From a virus: a DNA stretch of 20,947 nucleotides. Position 1 is the stretch's first letter. Each line of letters starts with the position of its first letter. The DNA lies in the IMG/VR virus record IMGVR_UViG_3300028388_002874, positions 1-20,947 of that record; one strand, given 5' to 3'. Both the position numbers and the translations under genes were made by a program. Under the pieces are notes generated by a model, which was not told where the DNA came from, searched no databases, and was given only the letters and a program-made list of their open reading frames with translations. Below, one piece after another: positions 2,386-20,947 of this stretch.

Positions 2386-2765
2386 GCAAAGTTGCCGTCG
2401 TCAAACGCCGCGGCGATCACCTGGTCCCTGATCCATCGGTACTTCTCGTCCTTGTAGATCGCGCGCGCGTTGACGGCGCTGCACTTGATCAGCCCGTCGT
2501 GGCCCTGGATCAGCCAGTCCTTGGTCAGCGTCACCAACATCTCGGTCAGTCGCGCCTCTTCCTTCTCGGCGGTGATCGTCTTGTTGTTGCGCAACTGCTC
2601 GTTGCGGTAGCGCGCGCGTAAAGCGCGAAACTCCGGGGTGTCGGTATTGCCGACCTCGATGAACATCTCTTTGCCGTCGTCGGTCACCAGCACCTCGTCG
2701 GTGATGCGGTGCCGAATCGGCATCTTGTAGGTCGGGGAAAGGGTGATGTCGTCAATCGTTGCCAT
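2364..2765 (-). CDS. Tail assembly chaperone, first frame (gpG-like)
   Basis: A 133-residue protein starting MATIDDITLSPTYKMP. The frame is open further upstream, but ATG at 2765 is chosen because the 14 residues before it look like leader sequence. The protein is charged and helical, with KEMFIEVGNTDTPEFRALRARY and a conserved-looking Trp-rich middle (DWLIQGHDG...YRWIRDQV). It follows the tail tube gene and precedes the frame-shifted extension and the tape measure gene, the invariant order of siphovirus tail operons. The length is close to that of lambda gpG (140). Its expected role is to coat the tape measure protein before tube polymerisation. The assignment rests mainly on position, length and the overlapping -1 frame. 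Confidence 0.75.
   Translation of the reverse strand: MATIDDITLSPTYKMPIRHRITDEVLVTDDGKEMFIEVGNTDTPEFRALRARYRNEQLRNNKTITAEKEEARLTEMLVTLTKDWLIQGHDGLIKCSAVNARAIYKDEKYRWIRDQVIAAAFDDGNFAGESLAA
2379..2385 (-). promoter_or_regulatory. Candidate -1 ribosomal frameshift site (G GGG GAG)
   Basis: On the minus strand, the zero frame reads GCG GGG GAG TCG just before the stop of the first chaperone at 2364. A tRNA on GGG can re-pair perfectly one base back on GGG. The GAG codon would shift to GGA, so this is not the ideal X XXY YYZ pattern seen in lambda (G GGA AAG). After the shift the frame stays open to 1900. The choice of this site is inference. Confidence 0.5.
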
Positions 2766-2792
2766 GTGATTATGCTCTTTGGCTGGTTGGAG

Positions 2793-2813
2793 AAAAGCCG
2801 AGTGCACCCGGCT
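2793..2813 (-). terminator. Possible intrinsic terminator after the tail tube gene
   Basis: On the minus strand the sequence AGCCGGGTGCACTCGGCT folds into a stem of about seven pairs with one G-T pair. It is followed directly by TTTTCT. It lies between the tail tube stop (2840) and the chaperone start (2765). A leaky terminator here would lower chaperone and tape measure expression relative to the very abundant tube protein. The U run is short, so it may be partial. Confidence 0.5.
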
Positions 2814-2839
2814 GAGGGATAATCCTCTAAGGTCGGGGT

Positions 2840-3346
2840 TTAACCTGCGGTGGCGCTGCCCTCGAAGATGGTCCCATTGATGACGAGCGAAGACTGCACC
2901 TTCACCACGTCGTCGCCGGTGCCGACGCTGTAGCGCGACCCCTTGACGAGGCCAGGGAACATGAAGCGCGTCGGGCGCGGCGTGGCGCCGGTGCCAGATG
3001 CGTCCGGGGTGTCGGACAGCTCGACCTTCATCGGAACCGAGGTCACGTCGCCCTGCTTGGAGAGCAGGATGGCGAGGCCATCGTCGTCCGACTTGGCGAT
3101 GGAGAGGCTGACTTCACCGTTATCCACCGTGCCCATGAACTTACAGGCCACGCCGGTGCCGATTGGCGTGAAGGTGCCGATGGACGCATCGGGACCGAAC
3201 TCACCAACGGACTCGATGAGGCCGATCTCGGTCCAGGTCAGCGCGTCGTAGTTGGCGACCGACTCAGTGGCCGGAACCGCGGAGGTGGAAAGATAGACTT
3301 TGGTGCCTTTGGAGGCGATGAGGTCTACACAAGTGCCAAGTGCCAT
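2840..3346 (-). CDS. Major tail protein (tail tube)
   Basis: A 168-residue protein starting MALGTCVDLIASKGTKVYL. ATG at 3346 is chosen because AGGTGA lies five bases upstream. An upstream in-frame ATG at 3370 lacks such a site. The protein is rich in Thr, Ser, Gly and Val with beta-strand patterning (WTEIGLIESVGEFG, VSLSIAKSDDDG, PTRFMFPGLVKG), typical of tail tube subunits that stack into hexameric rings. It is followed by a terminator-like hairpin and the tail chaperones, and preceded by the tail terminator, matching the usual tail gene order. The strong ribosome site fits high expression. No second Ig-like domain is seen. The family call is by composition and context rather than a signature motif. 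Confidence 0.78.
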   Translation of the reverse strand: MALGTCVDLIASKGTKVYLSTSAVPATESVANYDALTWTEIGLIESVGEFGPDASIGTFTPIGTGVACKFMGTVDNGEVSLSIAKSDDDGLAILLSKQGDVTSVPMKVELSDTPDASGTGATPRPTRFMFPGLVKGSRYSVGTGDDVVKVQSSLVINGTIFEGSATAG

Positions 3347-3507
3347 AGTAATCACCTCGTAAGGTGTCACCAGGGAGGCGGCCTTGAGTGCAGAGACGAG
3401 GCGCGGGCGAGGTCTCTACCGGCGAACCTGGATCAGGTTTAAAAGTTTGAAGTTAGAAGTTAGAAGTTTGAAAGGTTGTGCGCTTCGCGCGCTCGATTTT
3501 TCAAACT
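3347..3507 (-). promoter_or_regulatory. Structured leader of the tail tube gene
   Basis: About 160 bases without a gene. It holds an inverted repeat AGAGAC/GTCTCT (3392-3397 and 3412-3417) and a perfect AACCTG-ATC-CAGGTT hairpin (3425-3439). The left arm and core of repeat copy R1 follow. The ribosome site AGGTGA is at the downstream end. A late tail promoter is possible here, as this is the longest gap in the tail region, but no clear -35/-10 pair was recognised. Confidence 0.4.
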
Positions 3508-3530
3508 TCAAACTTCACCCTTCACACTTC
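3443..3530. repeat. Heptad inverted repeat R1, full copy with GCGCTTCGCGC core
   Basis: On the plus strand a left arm of imperfect 7-base units (GAAGTTT, GAAGTTA, GAAGTTA, GAAGTTT; 3443-3475) is followed by the core GCGCTTCGCGC (3480-3490). A right arm of complementary units then follows (TCAAACTTCAAACTTC and on; 3501-3530). The arms can pair into a long imperfect hairpin. It sits downstream of the 37-residue gene and runs into its last codons. Confidence 0.85.
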
Positions 3531-3621
3531 TCTTCTCTTCCAGCCACTCCTCATAGGCACGCAGCGCGCCCTTGAGCAGTCGCAATAGCTTGTCATGAAA
3601 TCTTAGGTCGCTAGGCGTCAT
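3508..3621 (-). CDS. Small hypothetical tail-region protein (37 aa)
   Basis: It starts MTPSDLRFHDKLLRLLKGA and continues into an amphipathic, Trp/Glu/Lys-rich helix (RAYEEWLEEKR). ATG at 3621 overlaps the end of the tail terminator gene by 11 bases, which suggests coupled translation. The last residues (SVKGEV) are encoded by heptad repeat R1, so the native stop may have been replaced when the repeat arrived. A much longer frame containing it is mostly a shadow of the tail terminator gene. Small helical proteins of this kind occur after tail completion genes in related phages, but no function is known. Confidence 0.55.
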   Translation of the reverse strand: MTPSDLRFHDKLLRLLKGALRAYEEWLEEKRSVKGEV

Positions 3622-3988
3622 AGCAGACCACCGTCTGGAATTCGCAGGCCCACTGCAACAATGCGCCGTTGATACCTTCGAGCTTGCCGCTGGTGTATTC
3701 CATCGCGCCGAAGCCGGCGGCCGGTTGCCAGCCGGATAGACGCTCGACCACGGCATCGCGCACCGTCTCCAACGTCGCCGGACTATCCACCGTGAGCACC
3801 ACCAAGTAGGTGCGGCGCATGCGGGTCATGCTGATCAGCGCGCCCTCGTCCTCTGGCTCTTCCTGGCTTGGGTAGACGGTAGCGACCGGGTAGCTGTCGC
3901 GCTCCAGCGGGTTGATGCGGCTCGGCGCCTCGACCGTCGCCAGCGTGCTCAGGCCCTCCAGCCGGGTGATGATGGCGGCAACGCTCAC
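3611..3988 (-). CDS. Tail terminator-like protein
   Basis: A 125-residue protein starting MSVAAIITRLEGLSTLATVE. Its length, the mixed alpha/beta pattern, the central VVLTVDSPATLETVRDAVVERLSGW segment and the final strand (ALLQWACEFQTVVCYDA) resemble siphovirus tail terminator/completion proteins, which cap the tube at the head end. It lies upstream of the tail tube gene in transcription order, the lambda U-V order. ATG at 3988 overlaps the TGA of the preceding gene by four bases. A head-tail joining protein of similar fold is the main alternative. Confidence 0.62.
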   Translation of the reverse strand: MSVAAIITRLEGLSTLATVEAPSRINPLERDSYPVATVYPSQEEPEDEGALISMTRMRRTYLVVLTVDSPATLETVRDAVVERLSGWQPAAGFGAMEYTSGKLEGINGALLQWACEFQTVVCYDA

Positions 3989-4662
3989 GACGCCACCTTC
4001 ACCGGCATGAACGGGTAGCCGTAGACGCGCGGCGGCTGATTGCTGTTGAGCAGCGTCGATTGCGGTGCAGCCTGGATGCGCATGCCTTTGGCCGCCGCGT
4101 AGCCGATCCAGTACTCGGCGCAGGCGCGGTCCTCTTCGCGGCGTTTGGTGGCCTCGTGCGAGTAGTCGGCGCCCCAGATTTGCAGTTCCTCGACGCCGAG
4201 CATCAGCGCATAGGCGATGATCATCGGGATCGAGTTGTGCAGATACAGGTGCGCGGTCTTGCCAGCGGCGGCGATGACCTCCCCCAGCGGGTATTCGTAG
4301 ATGTGCGGCTTCTCGGCGCTGGCGCCCGCGATGCTGGTGATGACCGGCGCCTGGTGGCGCGCGGCCCAGTGCTCGATGGCCTCGACATAGCCGGGATACT
4401 TGGCGCGCTCGCCGTCGAGATAGTCGAGCACAAAGAGGGTGTCGAAGCGCACGCGGCCATCCATCCAGTGCACCGCGGCATTCAGGGACCAGACCTCGTC
4501 GAACCCGATCACCGGCGGCTCAGGCATGTGCGCCGTCTGCGCCGCGATCAGGTCGGCCTTGGTCGGCCCGAGCGCCACCAACTGCACGCGCTTGGGCGAC
4601 TGTCCGGTCGGATGTGCCCACGGAGAAGTTTGAAGTTTGAGGTTTGAAGTTTGATCGTTCAT
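3985..4662 (-). CDS. Rossmann-like phage protein, possibly MptE/DUF115-related
   Basis: A protein of about 225 residues. The body opens with a strand and Gly-rich loop (RVQLVALGPTKADL), then FDEVWSLNAAVHWM, HLYLHNSIPMIIAYALMLGV, EELQIWGADYSH and CAEYWIGYAAAKGM. This pattern is seen in phage proteins of unproven function that resemble the MptE-like/DUF115 fold or glycosyltransferases. ATG at 4662 lies in the centre of repeat R2, so the first dozen or so residues (MNDQTSNLKLQTSPW) are repeat-encoded. A GTG near 4589, just before the first strand, could be the ancestral start. It lies between lysozyme and tail terminator genes, outside the usual tail gene set, so it is probably an accessory gene. 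The fold is moderately supported; the function is open. Confidence 0.5.
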   Translation of the reverse strand: MNDQTSNLKLQTSPWAHPTGQSPKRVQLVALGPTKADLIAAQTAHMPEPPVIGFDEVWSLNAAVHWMDGRVRFDTLFVLDYLDGERAKYPGYVEAIEHWAARHQAPVITSIAGASAEKPHIYEYPLGEVIAAAGKTAHLYLHNSIPMIIAYALMLGVEELQIWGADYSHEATKRREEDRACAEYWIGYAAAKGMRIQAAPQSTLLNSNQPPRVYGYPFMPVKVAS

Positions 4663-4697
4663 CGACTTCACACTTCACCCTTTACCCTTCAAACTTC
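4625..4697. repeat. Heptad inverted repeat R2, copy with a different core
   Basis: The left arm is GAAGTTTGAAGTTTGAGG and further units (4625-4654). The centre is TCGTTCATCGA (4655-4665), which contains the start codon of the Rossmann-like gene on the minus strand. The right arm carries CTTCACACTTCACCC and CCTTCAAACTTC (to 4697). The stop of the lysozyme gene lies inside the right arm. The usual GCGCTTCGCGC core is absent. Confidence 0.82.
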
Positions 4698-5238
4698 CCC
4701 CAAAGAGGGACTTCTCGGCCTCGCGCCGGCGCTCGAGGCCACGCAGACGCTTGCCGCCGGCATGGACCCATCGGCCGAACTCTTGCGCGGCGCCGGCCGT
4801 ATCGCCCGCGTTGAGCTTGCGCAACAACGTCGATTTCTTCAACGCGCCACACCCGACGTTGAAGGCGAAGCTCACTAGGGCGTCGTACTGGCCCTGCGTC
4901 AGCTCGTGCGTCACCATCTCTGAGACGCAGTCCTCGAAGCGCTGTAGATCGGCGCGCAGCAGCCCAAGCGCCTCGGCCTCGTTGATGACCTGCCCCGGGT
5001 GCACGTTGCGGGTATGCCCATATCCAATCGTCCAGACGCCAGCCGAGTCGAGGTAGGCCTTCAGTCGCAGGCCCTCGAACGACTTGATCAGATTGACCCC
5101 GCGCGGACTGGTGCGCGTCGGCTGGATCGGGTCGGGTGCATCCGGCGCCGCGGCCGTCTCTGGCTTCGGTTGTGGCTTGTTAGGAATCAGGCGCTTGCGT
5201 TGTTTCCAAGCGACCTGGAACGGATGGATCAGGCTCAT
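4675..5238 (-). CDS. Phage endolysin, GH24 lysozyme (muramidase)
   Basis: It hydrolyses the MurNAc-GlcNAc bond of peptidoglycan to release progeny. The 187-residue protein has a proline-rich N-terminal linker (residues about 20-45) and then the GH24 domain. The T4-lysozyme type triad is visible: Glu in KSFEGLRLKAY, Asp in YLDSAGVWTIGYGHT and Thr at the end of that motif. The later helices (GQYDALVSFAFNVG, GRWVHAGGKRLRGLERRREAE) are typical of RrrD-like endolysins. The N-terminal FQVAWKQRKRLIPNKP is basic and only weakly hydrophobic, so a signal-arrest segment is not obvious and a holin would be needed for export. ATG at 5238 overlaps the preceding gene's stop. The last residues (GSLKGKG) and the stop come from repeat R2. 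Confidence 0.93.
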   Translation of the reverse strand: MSLIHPFQVAWKQRKRLIPNKPQPKPETAAAPDAPDPIQPTRTSPRGVNLIKSFEGLRLKAYLDSAGVWTIGYGHTRNVHPGQVINEAEALGLLRADLQRFEDCVSEMVTHELTQGQYDALVSFAFNVGCGALKKSTLLRKLNAGDTAGAAQEFGRWVHAGGKRLRGLERRREAEKSLFGGSLKGKG

Positions 5239-5453
5239 CGAATCCCCTCCAGTTTGTTGATGGCCGAGCGCGTGTTACGAAACGCCTCGGCGAGGTCATG
5301 GCTGATCTCTCGCAACGTCACGACGAGAGACGGGTCGATCTGTTCGTCGGCGGCCTTGTTGACGATGTGATGCAGTCCGACGGCGTCCTTGGAGACCTTG
5401 CCGGCGTGCACCAGCAGCATCTGCGCCTGCTCCTTGATGTCTTGCAGGGTCAT
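5235..5453 (-). CDS. Hypothetical small protein before lysozyme (72 aa)
   Basis: It starts MTLQDIKEQAQMLLVHAGK. It is an all-helical, soluble-looking protein with no membrane segment and ends in NTRSAINKLEGIR. It overlaps both neighbours by four bases (ATGA), so it is translated as part of the lysis run between the membrane protein at 5450 and lysozyme at 4675. No family was recognised. Position suggests a lysis accessory role, but this is inference only. Confidence 0.65.
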   Translation of the reverse strand: MTLQDIKEQAQMLLVHAGKVSKDAVGLHHIVNKAADEQIDPSLVVTLREISHDLAEAFRNTRSAINKLEGIR

Positions 5454-5845
5454 CGCTGAGACTCTAGTCGCTTAATGCGTTCATCCAGTTCACGCCCTTG
5501 CGTGCCGGTGAACGGATCGGCACGTTTCGCAGAAACACGAATCAACTCGTGAATTGCCGCCTCGTTTTCGAGAATCTGGGCTATCCACCTGTCGGCCTGC
5601 TTCTCGTGCTCGACCCTGTGGATACTATTTTCTGCGGTCTGTCTTGCAATAATTGAGAGTGTGTTTTCGAGCTGACGTAGCTCAGTGGCGAGACTGTCGG
5701 TCGCGCTGTGTAATACGCCAATGTCCGACTGGAGAACACCCAGGTCGCGCCAACTAACAGCGACAGCACCACCAGACGCAACGGCAGCGGATATGAGCCC
5801 CGCCGCAGCCAGTTTGACCCACCCTTCCTCCTCCGGTCTTCCCAC
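5450..5845 (-). CDS. Membrane-anchored coiled-coil protein (spanin-like or holin-associated)
   Basis: The segment WVKLAAAGLISAAVASGGAVAVSW forms one transmembrane helix near the N-terminus. A long charged helix follows (residues about 45-130, ending ADPFTGTQGRELDERIKRL). This is the layout of an inner-membrane spanin or a small phage membrane protein. The start is uncertain. GTG at 5845 is in frame. An ATG at 5853 overlaps the upstream TGA and begins MNKWEDRRR in another frame, so a one-base indel in the purine run near 5830 could have separated the real start from the body. It lies two genes upstream of lysozyme. Confidence 0.6.
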   Translation of the reverse strand: MGRPEEEGWVKLAAAGLISAAVASGGAVAVSWRDLGVLQSDIGVLHSATDSLATELRQLENTLSIIARQTAENSIHRVEHEKQADRWIAQILENEAAIHELIRVSAKRADPFTGTQGRELDERIKRLESQR

Positions 5846-14401: not shown

Positions 14402-14710
14402 CTATCGGCGCCAAGAATTGACCCAACTGTAAGCCGTGGCGCGGCTGACGTTGTAGCGCTGCTGGATGGTCTGCGGGGTGTCTTTGTGCGTGATCTGCGG
14501 TCGCTCTGGGCGCTTGGGGATATAGATGCGCTCCCCACCCCACTCGGCGCAGATGACCTCGACGACAAAACGGGCCTGCTCGCCGCTGCACCAGGGCTCA
14601 CGCATCAACCGCGCCTTGAGATCATCTGCCCAGCTCATGATGAGAAGTTTGAAGGGTGAAGGGTGAAGTGTGAAGTGTGACGTGATGAGCGCTTCGCGCG
14701 GCGATGGCAT
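14402..14710 (-). CDS. Mor-type helix-turn-helix regulator-like protein with a repeat-encoded N-terminus
   Basis: The core part begins MSWADDLKARLMREPWCSGE and ends in a helix-turn-helix (TIQQRYNVSRATAYSWVNSW), preceded by IYIPKRPERPQ. This matches Mor/Mar-type transcription activator domains of phages. Two starts compete. ATG at 14638 gives 78 residues but has only a C/T-rich leader. ATG at 14710 has a perfect GGGGAGGA seven bases upstream, and translation from it passes through the core and left arm of repeat R3, adding MPSPREALITSHFTLHPSPF to the front. The second start is chosen on its ribosome site. In this position the protein could regulate late genes or act as a small packaging-associated DNA-binding protein. 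Confidence 0.65.
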   Translation of the reverse strand: MPSPREALITSHFTLHPSPFKLLIMSWADDLKARLMREPWCSGEQARFVVEVICAEWGGERIYIPKRPERPQITHKDTPQTIQQRYNVSRATAYSWVNSWRR

Positions 14711-14757
14711 TGGCGAGTCCTCCCCTTTCAAACTTCCAACTTCAAACTTCAAACTTT
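14644..14757. repeat. Heptad inverted repeat R3, full copy with core
   Basis: The left arm GAAGTTTGAAGGGTGAAGGG and further units (14644-14680) is followed by the core GCGCTTCGCGC (14689-14699). After an insert, the right arm reads TTTCAAACTTCCAACTTC and on (14725-14757). The terminase C-terminal stop (TAA at 14756-14758) is at the outer edge of the right arm. A ribosome site and start codon for the Mor-like protein lie between the core and right arm. Confidence 0.85.
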
Positions 14758-15232
14758 ATCTGCGCCACTTATTGACGTAGTTGTTGCGCTTCACCGGCCG
14801 AGGGCGGTTATCCGCCTGCTCCACCGCCGGCTTCTCTTGCCGCGGCAGCACAGCGCCGGCGAGCCGGTAGGCCGACAGTCCGTAAATCCAACAGTCCAAG
14901 GCCTCGTTGCGCGCTCGGGTCTGCACCCACTCGGCATAGGCGCGGGTGCCGCGGACCTTGGTGATGAGCTTCTCGGCGGCGAGCTGCGCGAAGTATTCGT
15001 CGTCGAAGGCGGGCTCGGCCGGCCAGTGGATGTAGCCCGGCCCCGGCACCTGCAGCTTGCAGCGGGCATAGAGCAGGGACTTGGCCTGATCCACGCCGAG
15101 CAGATAGACCGGAGCGGCGCGCTTGCGCTGCTGGCGCATGCGCTGGCGGCGGCGGCGCTCGTCCTCGACGATGGGCCGGCCGGTGCCGGGCATGCCCTTG
15201 ACCGGGAAGGCCCAGGCGCGCGCGGCGCAGAA
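14756..15232 (-). pseudogene. C-terminal piece of terminase large subunit, out of frame
   Basis: The frame from about 15232 reads FCAARAWAFPVKGMPGTGRP, then PVYLLGVDQAKSLLYARCKLQ, GPGYIHWPAEPAFDDEYFAQL and WVQTRARNEALDCWIYGLSA, ending NNYVNKWRR. This is the conserved end of gpA-type terminases: the KGMPG motif, the YIHxP block and the EALDC-W block. It is in a different frame from the upstream terminase part, so the gene is broken at about 15230-15237. Confidence 0.85.
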
Positions 15233-17735
15233 GCTTCAGGTCCTCGCCGAGGGCGGACCAGACCTCCGGCAGGGCCGTGTCGCCGGGCAGGATCAGGTGG
15301 TCGATGACCCAGCACTCCTCGCCCTCGCCCACGTCCATGATGGTGGCCTCGAGGCGGTCCTTCTGCACATCGACGCCGGCGCAGCGCAGCGCGGGCGGGC
15401 GCTGCTCCGGGTAGTGCTCGAGGCGGCCGAGCAGGTTGAGCGGGTCGAGGCTGTCGCCCTCCTCCTCCCAGGCCTCGCCGAGGCTGGTATTGATGAAGCG
15501 CTTGAGCTTGGCCGTATCCCCGTGCGCGTCGTCCCAGGCGTCCATCAGCTCGGCCCAGGAGCGGCCGAGGCCGATGGGGCTGTAGAGCTGGTTGAGCGCA
15601 TAGCCGCGCGTGCGCTTGCCGGGGTTGGCCGCCACCCAGGCGCCCTCGCGCAGCATGGCCGGCTTGTGATGCTCCTCGATGTCGGCCTCGCAGTGCAGGC
15701 AGCGGTAGGTGACGCGGCCGCTGGCGGGCGCGCGGATCAGGCTGTAGCTGCCGTCGTCGCGGCGCCAGCGCAGCGGTTGGCGCTCGCCGCAGTGCGGGCA
15801 GGGCACCTGGTAGCTGCGCTGGTCGCTGAGGCTGTATTCGTCGTCGATCCGGCTCAGTCCGGCCGTGGTCGGGGTGCTGATGAGCAGAATCTTGCGGCGC
15901 GGAAAGTTGTTGGTGCGCTGCTCGACCAGGCCGAGCGGATCGCCCTCGATGCCGGCCTCCCACGGGAAGCGGTCCACCTCGTCGCAGAGGACGTATTGGA
16001 TCGGCATCGCGGCCAGGCTGGCCGGGGAGTTGGCGCCGCCCAGCACGAGGATGCCGCCGGGAAAGTCCTTCATGTCCTCCGAGTTGCCGGCGTCGCGCTG
16101 GCTGCGCGCGTCGAACAGCCGCGAGATGGCCGGCGTCTCCTTCAGCAGCGGGTCCAGCCGCTGCCGGACCCAGCGCTTGCGCACCTCGATGGTCGGCACC
16201 ACCACTAGCATCGGCGCCGGCGCGTGCGCCATGACGTAGCCAATCCAGTTGAGCCCGACCTCGGTGTTGTGCGTTGGCACCATCGCCTCGCCGGCCAGGT
16301 ACAGATGCGTCGGCGAGTCGACGGCAATGCACCGGGTCGGCCGCGACGCAACCGCATCAACGCCAACGATCCGCCTGCGCAACGTCTCGCTCGGCCTGCC
16401 CGTCGCTTTTGACTTAAGCCGCTTTCGTTTCCGCTCAAGGTGGAACACGGGCCAGTCGGCGTAGGCGGTGAATCTAATTCGTGCGCTTTCTCGGCCGCCT
16501 TTTGGCGTTCGCCAGCGGACGGTCGGCTTAAAACCCAGTGAACGGATCAACTCTGCAATCCCTGCCGCAAGGGCAGGATAGGATGACGCGATCTCGCAAT
16601 TTCGACCATCGGGGCCAACGTGTCCGTCGGTGTCCATGAGTCCGCGCAGCAGCTCCATGCGCTGCGCGGCTGATGCGCGCAGATACAACCCCGGGATGTG
16701 TTTATTGCCGATCAGGTCCGCTGCATTGAGCCGCGAGTAAAAGGTCGGCCGGATCACGGGGTCGATCGCCGCCCCGTATTTGCTCTTCTTGCTGTGCTGA
16801 CGCTGGCACTCTGCGCACACATGCACCGACTTGCCGTGGCGCGTCGTTTTGTAGGTGCCGACCTCGGAAAGGATATGACCGCGCAGGCACAGGCCTTCAC
16901 GCGGGCCGCAGGCATCAATCTGCAGCGTCACCGTGACGCCACGGCGGCCGCGCTGAGTCACCTGATACCCCCCCTGCTCAATCCTGGCAATGATCTCCGG
17001 GGCATCGGTGCTGTTCTCCGACACCTGCGCCGAGGCTGAATAGCCGTCGCCAAGCCACACGCCGAGGGTATAGGGGTCGATCGGCAACGGTTGGTCCGGT
17101 AGGTCGAGTGCGGCAGTGACCGGAACCGCGTAGCGGTGACGCTGCCGGTGGCGGTAGCTGGCGGCGACCTGTTCAGTGGAGAGCGTGACCTCGCGCGGTT
17201 GACGATAGTCAGCGGTGTCGGTCAGCGTCCATCGGTGCGCGGCATCGGCAATGATCTCGGCGCCATCGGAGAAGCGCACGCGATAACAATCGTGATCGTC
17301 GAATACCTCCGAGCAGAACAAGACCTTGACCGGCCGCCCGTGCTCGTCGAACACATGGTTCCCTGTCTGAACGTCACCCATCCGCACCCAACCTTCCGGC
17401 GTCGGGATCGGCGTATCGACATCGAGCGCCTTGCCCAACTGCGCCCCGAATCGCAGCACCACGCGCTGCACGTCCGAGGTGACGCTGAGGCAGTCCATCA
17501 CCTCGCGCAGGTAGGGCGTGCGTTCTGTGCGCCAGCGCCCGATCTCGCTCGAGGCCTTGCCGGTGAGCATCCGATGCGCGTCCGACCACGCCGAGAGGGT
17601 CTGCACCCGCGGCGGGCGCACGCGCCGCGCGAAGGTCTGATAGAGCGCCGCGCGGTTGTGCGGGATCAGCACCCGCGAGCGGCGGTCCCGCTGCGCGGAA
17701 GTTGGAAGTTTGAAGGGTGAAGTTTGAAGGGTCAT
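14808..17735 (-). CDS. Terminase large subunit (gpA family), intein-containing, frame-broken
   Basis: The terminase ATPase and nuclease cuts concatemers and drives packaging. ATG at 17735 overlaps the preceding TGA. The first residues (MTLQTSPFKLPTS) are encoded by repeat R4, and the recognisable gpA sequence begins near RVRPPRVQTLSAWSDAHRML. The P-loop AQLGK-TE is split by an intein (16266-17429). After it come LVVVPTIEVRKRWVRQRL, the Walker B strand YVLCDEVDRFPW, a CPHC/CLHC zinc pair and the start of the nuclease domain (CAGVDVQKDRLEATIMD with its first catalytic Asp). Real sequence ends at VWSALGEDLK (about residue 834). About 30 residues, including the usual D-SGGHHT nuclease motif, appear to be missing. 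The remaining tail down to 14808 is an Arg/Pro/Ala-rich shadow of the true C-terminus, which is found in another frame. Confidence 0.92.
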   Translation of the reverse strand: MTLQTSPFKLPTSAQRDRRSRVLIPHNRAALYQTFARRVRPPRVQTLSAWSDAHRMLTGKASSEIGRWRTERTPYLREVMDCLSVTSDVQRVVLRFGAQLGKALDVDTPIPTPEGWVRMGDVQTGNHVFDEHGRPVKVLFCSEVFDDHDCYRVRFSDGAEIIADAAHRWTLTDTADYRQPREVTLSTEQVAASYRHRQRHRYAVPVTAALDLPDQPLPIDPYTLGVWLGDGYSASAQVSENSTDAPEIIARIEQGGYQVTQRGRRGVTVTLQIDACGPREGLCLRGHILSEVGTYKTTRHGKSVHVCAECQRQHSKKSKYGAAIDPVIRPTFYSRLNAADLIGNKHIPGLYLRASAAQRMELLRGLMDTDGHVGPDGRNCEIASSYPALAAGIAELIRSLGFKPTVRWRTPKGGRESARIRFTAYADWPVFHLERKRKRLKSKATGRPSETLRRRIVGVDAVASRPTRCIAVDSPTHLYLAGEAMVPTHNTEVGLNWIGYVMAHAPAPMLVVVPTIEVRKRWVRQRLDPLLKETPAISRLFDARSQRDAGNSEDMKDFPGGILVLGGANSPASLAAMPIQYVLCDEVDRFPWEAGIEGDPLGLVEQRTNNFPRRKILLISTPTTAGLSRIDDEYSLSDQRSYQVPCPHCGERQPLRWRRDDGSYSLIRAPASGRVTYRCLHCEADIEEHHKPAMLREGAWVAANPGKRTRGYALNQLYSPIGLGRSWAELMDAWDDAHGDTAKLKRFINTSLGEAWEEEGDSLDPLNLLGRLEHYPEQRPPALRCAGVDVQKDRLEATIMDVGEGEECWVIDHLILPGDTALPEVWSALGEDLKLLRRARLGLPGQGHARHRPAHRRGRAPPPPAHAPAAQARRSGLSARRGSGQVPALCPLQAAGAGAGLHPLAGRARLRRRILRAARRREAHHQGPRHPRLCRVGADPSAQRGLGLLDLRTVGLPARRRCAAAAREAGGGAGG
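16266..17429 (-). mobile_element. Class 3 intein with LAGLIDADG homing endonuclease, in the terminase P-loop
   Basis: A 388-residue intein inserted between Lys and Thr of the Walker A motif (AQLGK | TEVGL). It starts ALDVDTPIPTPEGWVRMGDV, so residue 1 is Ala instead of Cys or Ser. Block B reads ADAAHRWTL with Trp at intein residue 67. Block F reads TRCIAVDSPTHLYLAG with Cys 367. Block G is MVPTHN with Thr 386, followed by Thr at +1. Ala1 with this Trp-Cys-Thr triad is the signature of class 3 inteins, in which the block F Cys starts the reaction. Two LAGLIDADG motifs are visible: LGVWLGDG (about residue 122) and LLRGLMDTDG (about 260). Between them is a CLRGH...CAEC zinc-like module, so the endonuclease is complete and the element may still be mobile. 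All splicing residues are present. Confidence 0.93.
17698..17732. repeat. Heptad repeat R4, left arm only
   Basis: Units GAAGTTG, GAAGTTT, GAAGGGT, GAAGTTT, GAAGG on the plus strand. No core or right arm is present. It covers the first codons of the terminase gene and ends at the start/stop overlap with the XF1762-family gene. Confidence 0.8.
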
Positions 17736-18199
17736 TCGCCGATCTGCCATCTAAACTTCTGCTGCCCATAGATCGGCTGCCAATGCCGTAAACGGTCGAT
17801 GTTCTCTCGGTTCCATGATCCCGGTTTGCACTCGGCAACAATCCGCCAGCCGGCACCGCGCAGAGACGTGCCGGGCTCCGTTTGCAGCGTGTAAGTAATC
17901 AACCGCTTACCTCCCATCGCGCGCCAAGCCCGCCAGCACGCGCCATACAGCATTGACGGCGTATTCTTCGGCGCATCATCACGGCAACACACGCGCAAGA
18001 CCTCTGCCGTGAAAAGGTCCGCAAGCAGTCTGGCCACTGGACGCCCGACGATTGCAACGCCGACTAGACCCAAATCGTTGTCACCGCAAGACACTGCCCA
18101 CTTTCCGCCGTCTCTCGCTGTGCGGCGCGAGTGCCGGTGATACGACTCAACAAAGTCATTGGCCTCACGCAACGTGATAGGCATCAGAACTAGGCTCAC
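17732..18199 (-). CDS. XF1762-family phage protein
   Basis: A 155-residue protein. The conserved blocks of this phage family are visible: PITLREANDFVESYHRHSRR, then KWAVSC, GLVGVAIVGRPVARLL, TAEVLRVCCRDD, NTPSMLYGACWRAWRAMGG, KRLITYTL and TSLRGAGWRIV. The pattern is GNAT-like, but no activity has been shown to my knowledge. GTG at 18199 overlaps the TGA of the previous gene. ATG at 18184 (MPITLREAN) is an alternative, but the longer start matches the family's usual few residues before PITL. The stop overlaps the terminase start. Codon use is somewhat less GC-rich than in the packaging genes, which may mean separate acquisition. Confidence 0.75.
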   Translation of the reverse strand: MSLVLMPITLREANDFVESYHRHSRRTARDGGKWAVSCGDNDLGLVGVAIVGRPVARLLADLFTAEVLRVCCRDDAPKNTPSMLYGACWRAWRAMGGKRLITYTLQTEPGTSLRGAGWRIVAECKPGSWNRENIDRLRHWQPIYGQQKFRWQIGE

Positions 18200-18783: not shown

Positions 18784-18799
18784 TTCACCATTCGCTCCA

Positions 18800-18887
18800 A
18801 GTTTGAAGTTAGAAGTTCGAAGTTCGAAGTGCGGAGCGCTTCGCGCAACTTTTCACACTTCAAACTTCTTACTTCGCACTTCTTCGA
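18800..18887. repeat. Heptad inverted repeat R5, full copy with core
   Basis: The left arm has units GAAGTTA, GAAGTTC, GAAGTTC, GAAGTGC (18800-18831). The core GCGCTTCGCGC is at 18836-18846. The right arm TTCACACTTCAAACTTC and further units is at 18849-18887. It lies between two genes. The stop of the zinc-finger-like gene (18869) is inside the right arm, so that protein's last residues are repeat-encoded. Confidence 0.85.
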
Positions 18888-19663: not shown

Positions 19664-19710
19664 TTGAAGTTTGAAGTTCGAAGTTTGAAGTTTGAAAGAC
19701 GCGAAATCGC
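19664..19710. repeat. Heptad repeat R6, left arm plus a small hairpin
   Basis: Units GAAGTTT, GAAGTTC, GAAGTTT, GAAGTTT (19666-19698), followed by a short GC-flanked palindrome GCGAAATCGC (19701-19710) that takes the place of the usual core. It occupies the SSB leader. No right arm follows until copy R7, on the other side of the 77-residue gene. Confidence 0.8.
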
Positions 19711-19949: not shown

Positions 19950-20170
19950 CACGCAACCCCCACTTCACACCTCAAACTTCCAACTTCAAACTTCTCTTCC
20001 GCCTTCGCGTTGCAGAAGTACCGCCGCTCCTCATGCTCGGCGACCTTCGCGGCGTTGAACGCCGACACCGGCCGGTGATACCCCATCACCCGCGTCCACA
20101 CCTCGCACCGCGTCCGCTCGCCCTCGTCCAGTGCGACGCCCTCTGTCGTGTCGTTGTGCTTGTCGGTCAT
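19949..20170 (-). CDS. Mini NrdD-like protein (anaerobic ribonucleotide reductase C-terminal motif)
   Basis: A 73-residue protein containing RCEVWTRVMGYHRPVSAFNA followed by KVAEHEERRYF. This is the highly conserved C-terminal stretch of class III ribonucleotide reductase, found in phages and prophages as a stand-alone small protein of unknown use. It lacks the whole catalytic barrel, so it cannot be a reductase by itself. ATG at 20170 is chosen because GAGGG lies eight bases upstream. A longer upstream frame is only repeat sequence. The C-terminal end is repeat-encoded (R7). The next gene starts within its stop codon. Confidence 0.75.
   Translation of the reverse strand: MTDKHNDTTEGVALDEGERTRCEVWTRVMGYHRPVSAFNAAKVAEHEERRYFCNAKAEEKFEVGSLRCEVGVA
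19961..19994. repeat. Heptad repeat R7, right arm only
   Basis: CACTTCACACCTCAAACTTC and further units on the plus strand. It covers the last codons of the NrdD-like gene, adding the residues KFEVGSLRCEVGVA to its end. Confidence 0.8.
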
Positions 20171-20184
20171 GGTCTTACCCTCTT

Positions 20185-20216
20185 TTTCAAACTTCACACT
20201 TCACCCTTCGAACTTT
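20185..20216. repeat. Heptad repeat R8, right arm only
   Basis: TTTCAAACTTCACACTTC and further units on the plus strand. It covers the end of the small membrane protein gene (KVRRVKCEV) and lies upstream of the NrdD-like gene. Confidence 0.8.
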
Positions 20217-20344: not shown

Positions 20345-20680
20345 TCAGCGCCGCGGCCAGGTAGTGCCCGCCGGTGACGTTGAGCTGCTGCAGCGCGCGG
20401 CCTCGAGGTGGCCGACGGCGCTGCGGTAGTAGTTCGGATTCAGCTCCGAGCCGATGAACCGGCGCCCGAGCTCCAGCGCGGTGACGCCTTCGCTGCCGAT
20501 GCCGGTGAACGGGCTCCAGATGACCTCGTCGCGGTTGCTCCACAGCTCGATGGCGCGGGCGGTGATGTTCATGGGCATCGGGCACAGGTGGCGCTCGGCG
20601 TTCGGGTCGCGCGACTGCTTGACGTTGAGCACCTCGGTGGCGCGCAGGTCGTAGTCGCCGCCGCCGCTGCGCCCGCGAGC
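20345..20680 (-). pseudogene. DNA methyltransferase, C-terminal fragment
   Basis: The frame opens after a TAG at 20681 with GGGDYDLRATEVLNVKQSRD, then PNAERHLCPMP, ARAIELWSNRDEVIWSPFTG and IGSEGVTALELGRRFIGSEL. The FTGIGSEG block is the AdoMet-binding motif of N6-adenine/N4-cytosine methyltransferases. The usual order places the catalytic DPPY-type motif earlier, and this is missing because the gene is cut by the helicase junction. The fragment has no start codon of its own except a GTG at 20632. It would not be active alone. Confidence 0.8.
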
Positions 20681-20689
20681 CTACCACGC

Positions 20690-20936
20690 CCCTCCGCTCA
20701 TTCTGTGCCTCCGCCCGCGCCAGCGTTGCCATGATGGACGTTTTGCCCATGCCGGGACGGGCGCACACCACCACCATATCGCCGGGTAGCATAGGGTTCA
20801 TGACCTCGTCCACGCACGCTACGCCAAACGGGATGCCCGGTGCATTCAGCGTGCGCTCGGCGAACGCCACGTGCTCCGCCGATAGGTCCGCCGGATTGTG
20901 AATCAGCTCGCGCAGTTGTTCGTGTTTGTCGCTCAT
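20690..20936 (-). pseudogene. DnaB-like helicase, N-terminal fragment with Walker A
   Basis: It starts MSDKHEQLRELIHNPADLSA, then IPFGVACVDEVMNPMLPGDM and the P-loop VVVCARPGMGKTSIMATLA of RecA-fold helicases of the DnaB type. It lacks the DnaB N-terminal domain, like several short phage helicases. After about NERRG (residue 83) the frame turns into Arg-rich shadow of the methyltransferase. Walker B and the rest are gone. ATG at 20936 is close to the window edge, so upstream context is not visible. Confidence 0.78.
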
Positions 20937-20947
20937 AGCGCCCCGCT

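What the first reader, a model, noticed from the sequence alone, without database searches (positions are those of the whole stretch)
16266..17429. Class 3 intein splits the terminase P-loop
The intein starts with Ala and has Trp67, Cys367 and Thr386 at the block B, F and G positions, and Thr at +1. This is the Trp-Cys-Thr signature of the rare class 3 splicing mechanism. The insertion lies exactly between the P-loop Lys and Thr, so no packaging ATPase can form until splicing occurs. Splicing could act as a control point for late phage assembly.
Basis: partly seen in the sequence, partly recalled or inferred. Interest (0 to 1): 0.65.

Follow-up and report, generated by a model that had tools for sequence, protein, structure and literature searches.

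The report
Class 3 intein in terminase P-loop

Summary
A 388-aa intein (16266-17429, minus strand) splits a gpA-type terminase between AQLGK and TEVGLNW. It has Ala1, Asp62-xx-His65, Trp67, Cys367, Thr386, His387, Asn388 and Thr+1. Its closest solved relatives are the crystallised class 3 DnaB inteins (6bs8, 6rix). An AF2 model and Foldseek agree, and W, C and T are near-invariant in 136 aligned relatives. It also carries a LAGLIDADG homing endonuclease.

Class 3 is not rare, and the terminase K|T site was described in 2016 (TerL1-a). Tested TerL inteins splice quickly. A near relative sits in an unrelated terminase (61% intein, 28% extein identity), so homing explains the site better than regulation. 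In this contig the terminase is broken downstream: about 20-25 codons plus the frame are lost, removing the nuclease DSGYNT motif. The 'late assembly checkpoint' has no support here. New member of a known kind.

Worth more than the finding itself: in at least 32 phage/prophage loci, the named ones Rhodobacterales, the same-site class 3 intein is divided into two overlapping ORFs, each under purifying selection in its own frame. This looks like a naturally split class 3 intein.

The parts
17430..17750 (-). N-extein: residues 1-107 of the gpA-type terminase large subunit, ending ...RFGAQLGK
   Evidence: PF05876 GpA_ATPase; compared with inteinless relatives
16266..17429 (-). class 3 intein, 388 aa (A1 to N388)
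17286..17288 (-). Cys48 codon, same position as the redox-partner Cys48 of Msm DnaBi1
   Evidence: (Cys in 120 of 136 aligned inteins), PMC6195587
17229..17237 (-). block B: His65-Arg-Trp67 (Trp of the WCT triplet); Asp62 lies three codons upstream of His65
17043..17066 (-). first LAGLIDADG motif LGVWLGDG (intein 122-129)
   Evidence: sequence; alignment A1
16806..16889 (-). zinc-knuckle-like insert CLRGH...CAEC (Cys181, His185, Cys205, Cys208)
   Evidence: such a motif in 29 of 116 relatives; no Pfam match
16623..16652 (-). second LAGLIDADG motif LLRGLMDTDG (intein 260-269)
   Evidence: PF14528 E 1e-6, PF05204 E 8e-6
16329..16331 (-). Cys367, block F nucleophile of the WCT triplet
   Evidence: invariant in 136 of 136
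16266..16274 (-). block G: Thr386-His387-Asn388
15237..16265 (-). C-extein: rest of the ATPase domain (Thr+1 onward) and first part of the GpA nuclease domain
   Evidence: PF05876 and PF20454; 65-68% identical to L002/L003
15231..15236 (.). joint of a deletion of about 20-25 codons with frameshift in the nuclease domain; the joint carries the only HindIII site (AAGCTT) of the window
14756..15193 (-). rest of the nuclease domain, in another frame from the upstream part
   Evidence: PF20454 positions 179-288, E 2.1e-24

Best explanation
This is a mobile class 3 intein with a LAGLIDADG homing endonuclease, inserted between Lys and Thr of the P-loop of a gpA-type terminase. Inferred from the family, not shown here: on translation the HINT domain folds, Cys367 attacks the Lys(-1)-Ala1 bond to make a branched thioester, Thr+1 takes over the N-extein, Asn388 cyclises with help from His387, and the exteins are joined to restore GKT. 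The endonuclease cuts inteinless terminase genes at this conserved sequence so that the intein is copied in. It sits in the P-loop because that DNA is conserved and imprecise loss is lethal, not because it has a known regulatory task. In this contig the terminase would be non-functional even after splicing, through decay or assembly error.
For: Signature residues and exact junctions. Closest solved relatives are class 3 DnaB inteins with W, C and T in register. AF2 model pLDDT 86 matches PI-SceI (E 9e-20) and class 3 6bs8 (TMt 0.86-0.88 for two chains). 116 unbroken relatives: W 116/116, C 116/116, T 115/116, HN 115/116. Two LAGLIDADG motifs are present. Horizontal movement: L113 intein 61% vs C-extein 28% identity; the nearest exteins (L033, L034, L036-L041) lack the intein at the same site. 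In Kelley 2016 TerL inteins spliced, and both endonucleases tested cut inteinless targets.
Against: No splicing or cleavage assay exists for this protein. The splicing-domain tree is short: the class 1 / class 3 split has support 97/87, but the AU test does not reject grouping the window with class 1 (p 0.21). Pfam's splicing model PF14890 gives no match, probably because it models class 1.
Confidence: 0.9

Rival explanations
1. Splicing is conditional and acts as a switch for packaging, for example through a disulfide between Cys48 and the nucleophile Cys367, as in Msm DnaBi1.
For: Cys48 is at the same position as the DnaBi1 redox partner and is Cys in 120 of 136 aligned inteins, 35 of 44 after thinning; Kelley 2018 showed that a Cys48-Cys118 disulfide forms on oxidation and that splicing is reversibly inhibited (PMC6195587).
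Against: Replacing Cys48 abolished splicing in DnaBi1, so its conservation may only reflect catalysis or folding. The TerL inteins tested splice fast without a stimulus. Nothing links phage packaging to redox state.
Confidence: 0.1
2. The terminase is a pseudogene in a decaying phage or prophage; the intein is a passenger in a dead gene. (Not exclusive of the best explanation.)
For: Deletion of about 20-25 codons with frameshift removes the nuclease DSGYNT motif. A second break near 20.66 kb fuses a DnaB start to the end of a DNA methylase out of frame.
Against: A metagenomic assembly error would look the same; portal, head and tail genes are open. The intein itself is intact.
Confidence: 0.4
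3. It is a class 1 or 2 intein, or unrelated sequence, with W, C and T at these positions by accident.
For: AU test is not decisive.
Against: No nucleophile at position 1; DxxH instead of TxxH; class 3 structures are the best sequence hits and match the model; W, C and T are conserved across more than 130 sequences.
Confidence: 0.02

Closest known systems
Msm DnaBi1 and Mch DnaB1 class 3 inteins (PDB 6bs8, 6rix)
   Same: WCT residues, block B DxxH (DnaBi1), THN end, Cys48, and (DnaBi1) Ala1 and insertion in an ATPase P-loop
   Different: They are mini-inteins without an endonuclease, in DnaB with Ser+1; this one has a LAGLIDADG domain, sits in a terminase and has Thr+1
Mycobacteriophage TerL1-a inteins (Kelley 2016); phage Traaww1 (L021) read here as an example of the K|T site
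   Same: Traaww1 has the same K|T insertion point in a terminase P-loop and the class 3 WCT residues
   Different: Another terminase family as host protein; about 39% intein identity over 84% of the query
IMG/VR loci L002, L003 and L113
   Same: Same site, 59-63% intein identity, same layout with zinc-knuckle-like insert
   Different: Nuclease domains of L002 and L003 are intact; L113 is in a distant terminase (28% C-extein identity)
AceL NrdHF natural split class 3 intein (Hoffmann 2020)
   Same: Relevant to the split relatives: class 3, IntN of 98 aa
   Different: MCT triplet, in a ribonucleotide reductase gene, separate GIY-YIG gene between the halves; the Rhodobacterales loci keep WCT and keep LAGLIDADG inside IntC

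Membership tests
class 3 intein | no Cys or Ser nucleophile at position 1 | tested here: met
   Ala1
class 3 intein | Trp at block B:12 | tested here: met
   Trp67, two after His65, in register with DnaBi1 Trp67
class 3 intein | Cys at block F:4 | tested here: met
   Cys367 aligned with the RC(V) cysteine of 6bs8/6rix
class 3 intein | Thr at block G:5 | tested here: met
   Thr386 in PTHN
class 3 intein | HINT fold | tested here: met
   AF2 pLDDT 86.4; Foldseek 6bs8 TMt 0.86-0.88 for chains B and C
class 3 intein | phylogenetic position among class 3 inteins | tested here: inconclusive
   Falls on the class 3 side (97/87) but AU test p 0.21
class 3 intein | block F branched thioester intermediate | not testable with these tools
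   needs biochemistry
LAGLIDADG homing endonuclease intein | two LAGLIDADG motifs with acidic residues between blocks B and F | tested here: met
   LGVWLGDG and LLRGLMDTDG; PF14528/PF05204
LAGLIDADG homing endonuclease intein | cuts the inteinless allele | not testable with these tools
   only indirect: intein/extein incongruence
gpA-type terminase large subunit | GpA ATPase domain | tested here: met
   PF05876 E 9.4e-78
gpA-type terminase large subunit | intact GpA nuclease domain | tested here: not met
   split over two frames, DSGYNT segment missing
conditional protein splicing switch | splicing rate changed by a physiological signal | not testable with these tools
   only the conserved Cys48 hints at it

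The most novel reading that the evidence does not exclude
For the family to which this intein belongs: in Rhodobacterales phages the same terminase P-loop class 3 intein has become naturally split, with TerL-N + IntN (blocks A and B, usually 99 aa) and IntC + TerL-C (endonuclease, blocks F and G) made from two overlapping ORFs and joined by trans-splicing. For the window intein alone, the most novel reading not excluded is redox-gated splicing through Cys48-Cys367 (about 0.1).
Probability: 0.75. Interest if true: 0.6.

Novelty: new member of a known kind. Interest (0 to 1): 0.3.

Why it matters
The window intein itself adds one more case to a large, known group. Its value is as an entry to that group: the same P-loop position is hit in several terminase families by related class 3 inteins, which makes homing-site tracking testable. 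The redox partner Cys48, which the 2018 paper calls non-conserved, is in fact common in this group, so redox control can be tested outside mycobacteria. And one clade appears naturally split, although a survey of 1701 class 3 inteins found no split ones and reported a single natural case from a metagenome.

Tried and rejected
Exact-match search for another contig of the same phage that could decide between decay and assembly error: none found. Pfam PF14890 as a test for the splicing domain: no match, uninformative for class 3. Zinc-knuckle-like insert against Pfam: no significant family. AU test of the class: not decisive. Programmed +1 frameshifting for the split relatives: considered and thought less likely, because the ORF1 stop is not at a fixed place (ORF1/ORF2 overlap 44, 167 or 203 nt) while the ORF2 ATG and an SD-like stretch are present in 32 of 32. 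Assembly error for the split relatives: rejected, since the same layout recurs in isolate genomes (Thalassovita, Seohaeicola, Paradonghicola) and independent contigs.

Full report
Observation. The minus-strand ORF 14808-17750 reads without interruption through a 388-aa insert at 16266-17429. The host protein is a gpA-type terminase large subunit: PF05876 at E 9.4e-78, with the profile resuming at position 40 directly after the insert. Related terminases without an intein read, for example, AAQLGK|TEVGLNWIGY (L033), which fixes the junction exactly between the P-loop Lys and Thr. In many gpA relatives the Lys is replaced by Ala, Gly or Val while Thr/Ser stays, and related inteins also occur in such proteins: the constant feature of the site is the Thr/Ser, which is also the +1 residue of the intein.

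Class. The best solved relatives are the crystallised class 3 DnaB inteins of M. smegmatis and M. chimaera (6bs8, 6rix; E about 1e-26); ADAAHRW aligns to ADAQHQW, and PTRCIAVD...PTHN to PVRCVEVD...PTHN. In DnaBi1 the triplet is Trp67, Cys118 and Thr137 (PMC6195587), so even the Trp number is the same. An AF2 model from eight related inteins has mean pLDDT 86.4 and pTM 0.81. In Foldseek it matches PI-SceI (E 9e-20) over the whole length and class 3 DnaB inteins with TM-scores up to 0.88 normalised to them; the residue-level superposition was not printed, so the column match rests on the sequence alignment. Among 116 unbroken relatives W and C are present in all, T and HN in 115; in a 136-sequence alignment His65 and Cys367 are invariant, Trp67 135, Thr386 135. 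In a splicing-domain tree the window lies with L113 and L003 on the class 3 side of a 97/87 branch, but the AU test does not reject joining it with class 1 (p 0.21; 113 columns, long branches). I regard the class as settled by signature and structure, and the tree as consistent only.

Endonuclease and mobility. Between blocks B and F lie two LAGLIDADG motifs (LGVWLGDG, LLRGLMDTDG) and PF14528/PF05204 matches. Intein and host relationships disagree: L113 is 61% identical in the intein but 28% in the C-extein, whereas the terminases nearest to the window's (L033, L034, L036-L041; 62-69% in the search hits) are inteinless, with 44-52 of 60 nucleotides identical around the site. The same position is occupied in gpA-type and other terminases and in DnaB. 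This is the pattern of a homing element.

Is it a control point? The K|T terminase site is described as the classic TerL1-a site in Kelley et al. 2016 (PMC5050341), and mycobacteriophage Traaww1 (L021) has an intein with class 3 residues there. In that paper five terminase inteins spliced readily, with precursor readily visible for only one, and both endonucleases tested cut inteinless targets. Those authors do suggest regulatory roles, so the idea is in the literature, but nothing in this sequence supports it specifically. One new hint: the cysteine that forms the inhibitory disulfide in DnaBi1 (Cys48), called non-conserved in PMC6195587, is present here at the same position and in 120 of 136 aligned inteins (35 of 44 after thinning). 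Since its replacement kills splicing in DnaBi1, conservation may reflect catalysis rather than sensing.

The terminase is broken here. The GpA nuclease domain runs in the intein frame up to about 15237 and continues in another frame (PF20454 positions 1-127, then 179-288). Compared with L002 and L003, about 20-25 codons including the DSGYNT motif are missing. The joint coincides with the only HindIII site of the window (15231-15236), a curiosity I cannot explain. Near 20.66 kb a DnaB start is joined out of frame to the end of a DNA methylase. Decay and assembly error cannot be told apart: no second contig was found. Either way this contig gives no case for terminase control by splicing.

Split relatives. 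While tabulating relatives I found loci whose intein region is 1234 nt long, that is, not a multiple of three. In 32 loci (26 distinct intein sequences; genomes named Thalassovita, Seohaeicola, Paradonghicola, Albidovulum, Flavimaricola, and IMG/VR contigs whose hosts were not determined) the terminase is coded by two overlapping ORFs: ORF1 = TerL-N plus 99 (in four loci 140-152) codons from the intein start, with blocks A and B, and ORF2 = 326 intein residues with the endonuclease, block F Cys and THN, plus TerL-C. ORF2 has in all 32 an ATG at the same position, preceded by a purine-rich SD-like stretch (GAGG, AAGG, GGGGGA), while the ORF1 residue encoded there varies (R, K, G). In a ten-locus subset, median dN/dS is 0.12 for IntN in the ORF1 frame and 0.09 for IntC in the ORF2 frame, against above 2 in the wrong frames; TerL-C is 0.02. 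Pfam finds the ATPase start in ORF1 and the rest of the ATPase plus a full nuclease in ORF2. Related L310 and L314 are undivided. The simplest reading is a naturally split, trans-splicing class 3 intein; +1 frameshifting is the rival. Hoffmann 2020 found no split form among 1701 class 3 inteins and reported AceL NrdHF as the first (PMC7891396); my paper searches found no report of split class 3 terminase inteins in the held library, which does not cover all journals.

Verdict. The window feature is a well-read, ordinary member of a known kind. The regulatory claim is unsupported and further weakened by the broken terminase. The side discovery of the split clade is more interesting than the finding.

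Noticed in passing
L009, L010, L218, L224, L228, L230, L238, L244, L245, L246, L249, L250 and 20 of L284-L305 (e.g. L244: ORF1 2423-3034, ORF2 2991-5657): Same-site class 3 terminase inteins divided into two overlapping ORFs (TerL-N+IntN; IntC with endonuclease+TerL-C); 32 of 32 with the ORF2 ATG at one position and an SD-like stretch, both halves under purifying selection in their own frames in a ten-locus test. Probable naturally split class 3 intein.
   Followed up: yes
window 16806-16889; L002, L003, L004, L113-L121, L193-L201 and others: Zinc-knuckle-like module C-x2-GH...C-x2-C inserted in the LAGLIDADG part in 29 of 116 relatives, in different kinds of terminase; no Pfam match.
   Followed up: partly
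window 15231-15236: The only HindIII site of the window lies at the joint of the frameshifting deletion in the terminase nuclease domain; could be coincidence or an artefact of sample handling.
   Followed up: no
window about 20600-20940: DnaB-like start (P-loop ARPGMGKTS) joined out of frame to the C-terminal end of an N6_N4 DNA methylase: a second break in the contig.
   Followed up: partly
window 3442-3530, 4625-4697, 14644-14757, 17698-17729, 18798-18868, 19666-19697, 19970-20202: Heptamer-spaced CTTCAAACTTC units: 35 matches against 0.09 expected, mostly between genes and often as facing arms, so possible hairpins; one block lies within the start of the terminase gene.
   Followed up: partly
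window 17732-18199: Mom-like DNA modification gene directly upstream of and overlapping the terminase start (phrog_1384, E 5e-31).
   Followed up: no
L274/L276: A class 1 intein (Cys1...HNFVANDLVVHN) in a DnaB P-loop at GK|S, the same type of site used by class 3 inteins in other DnaB proteins: two classes at one site.
   Followed up: no
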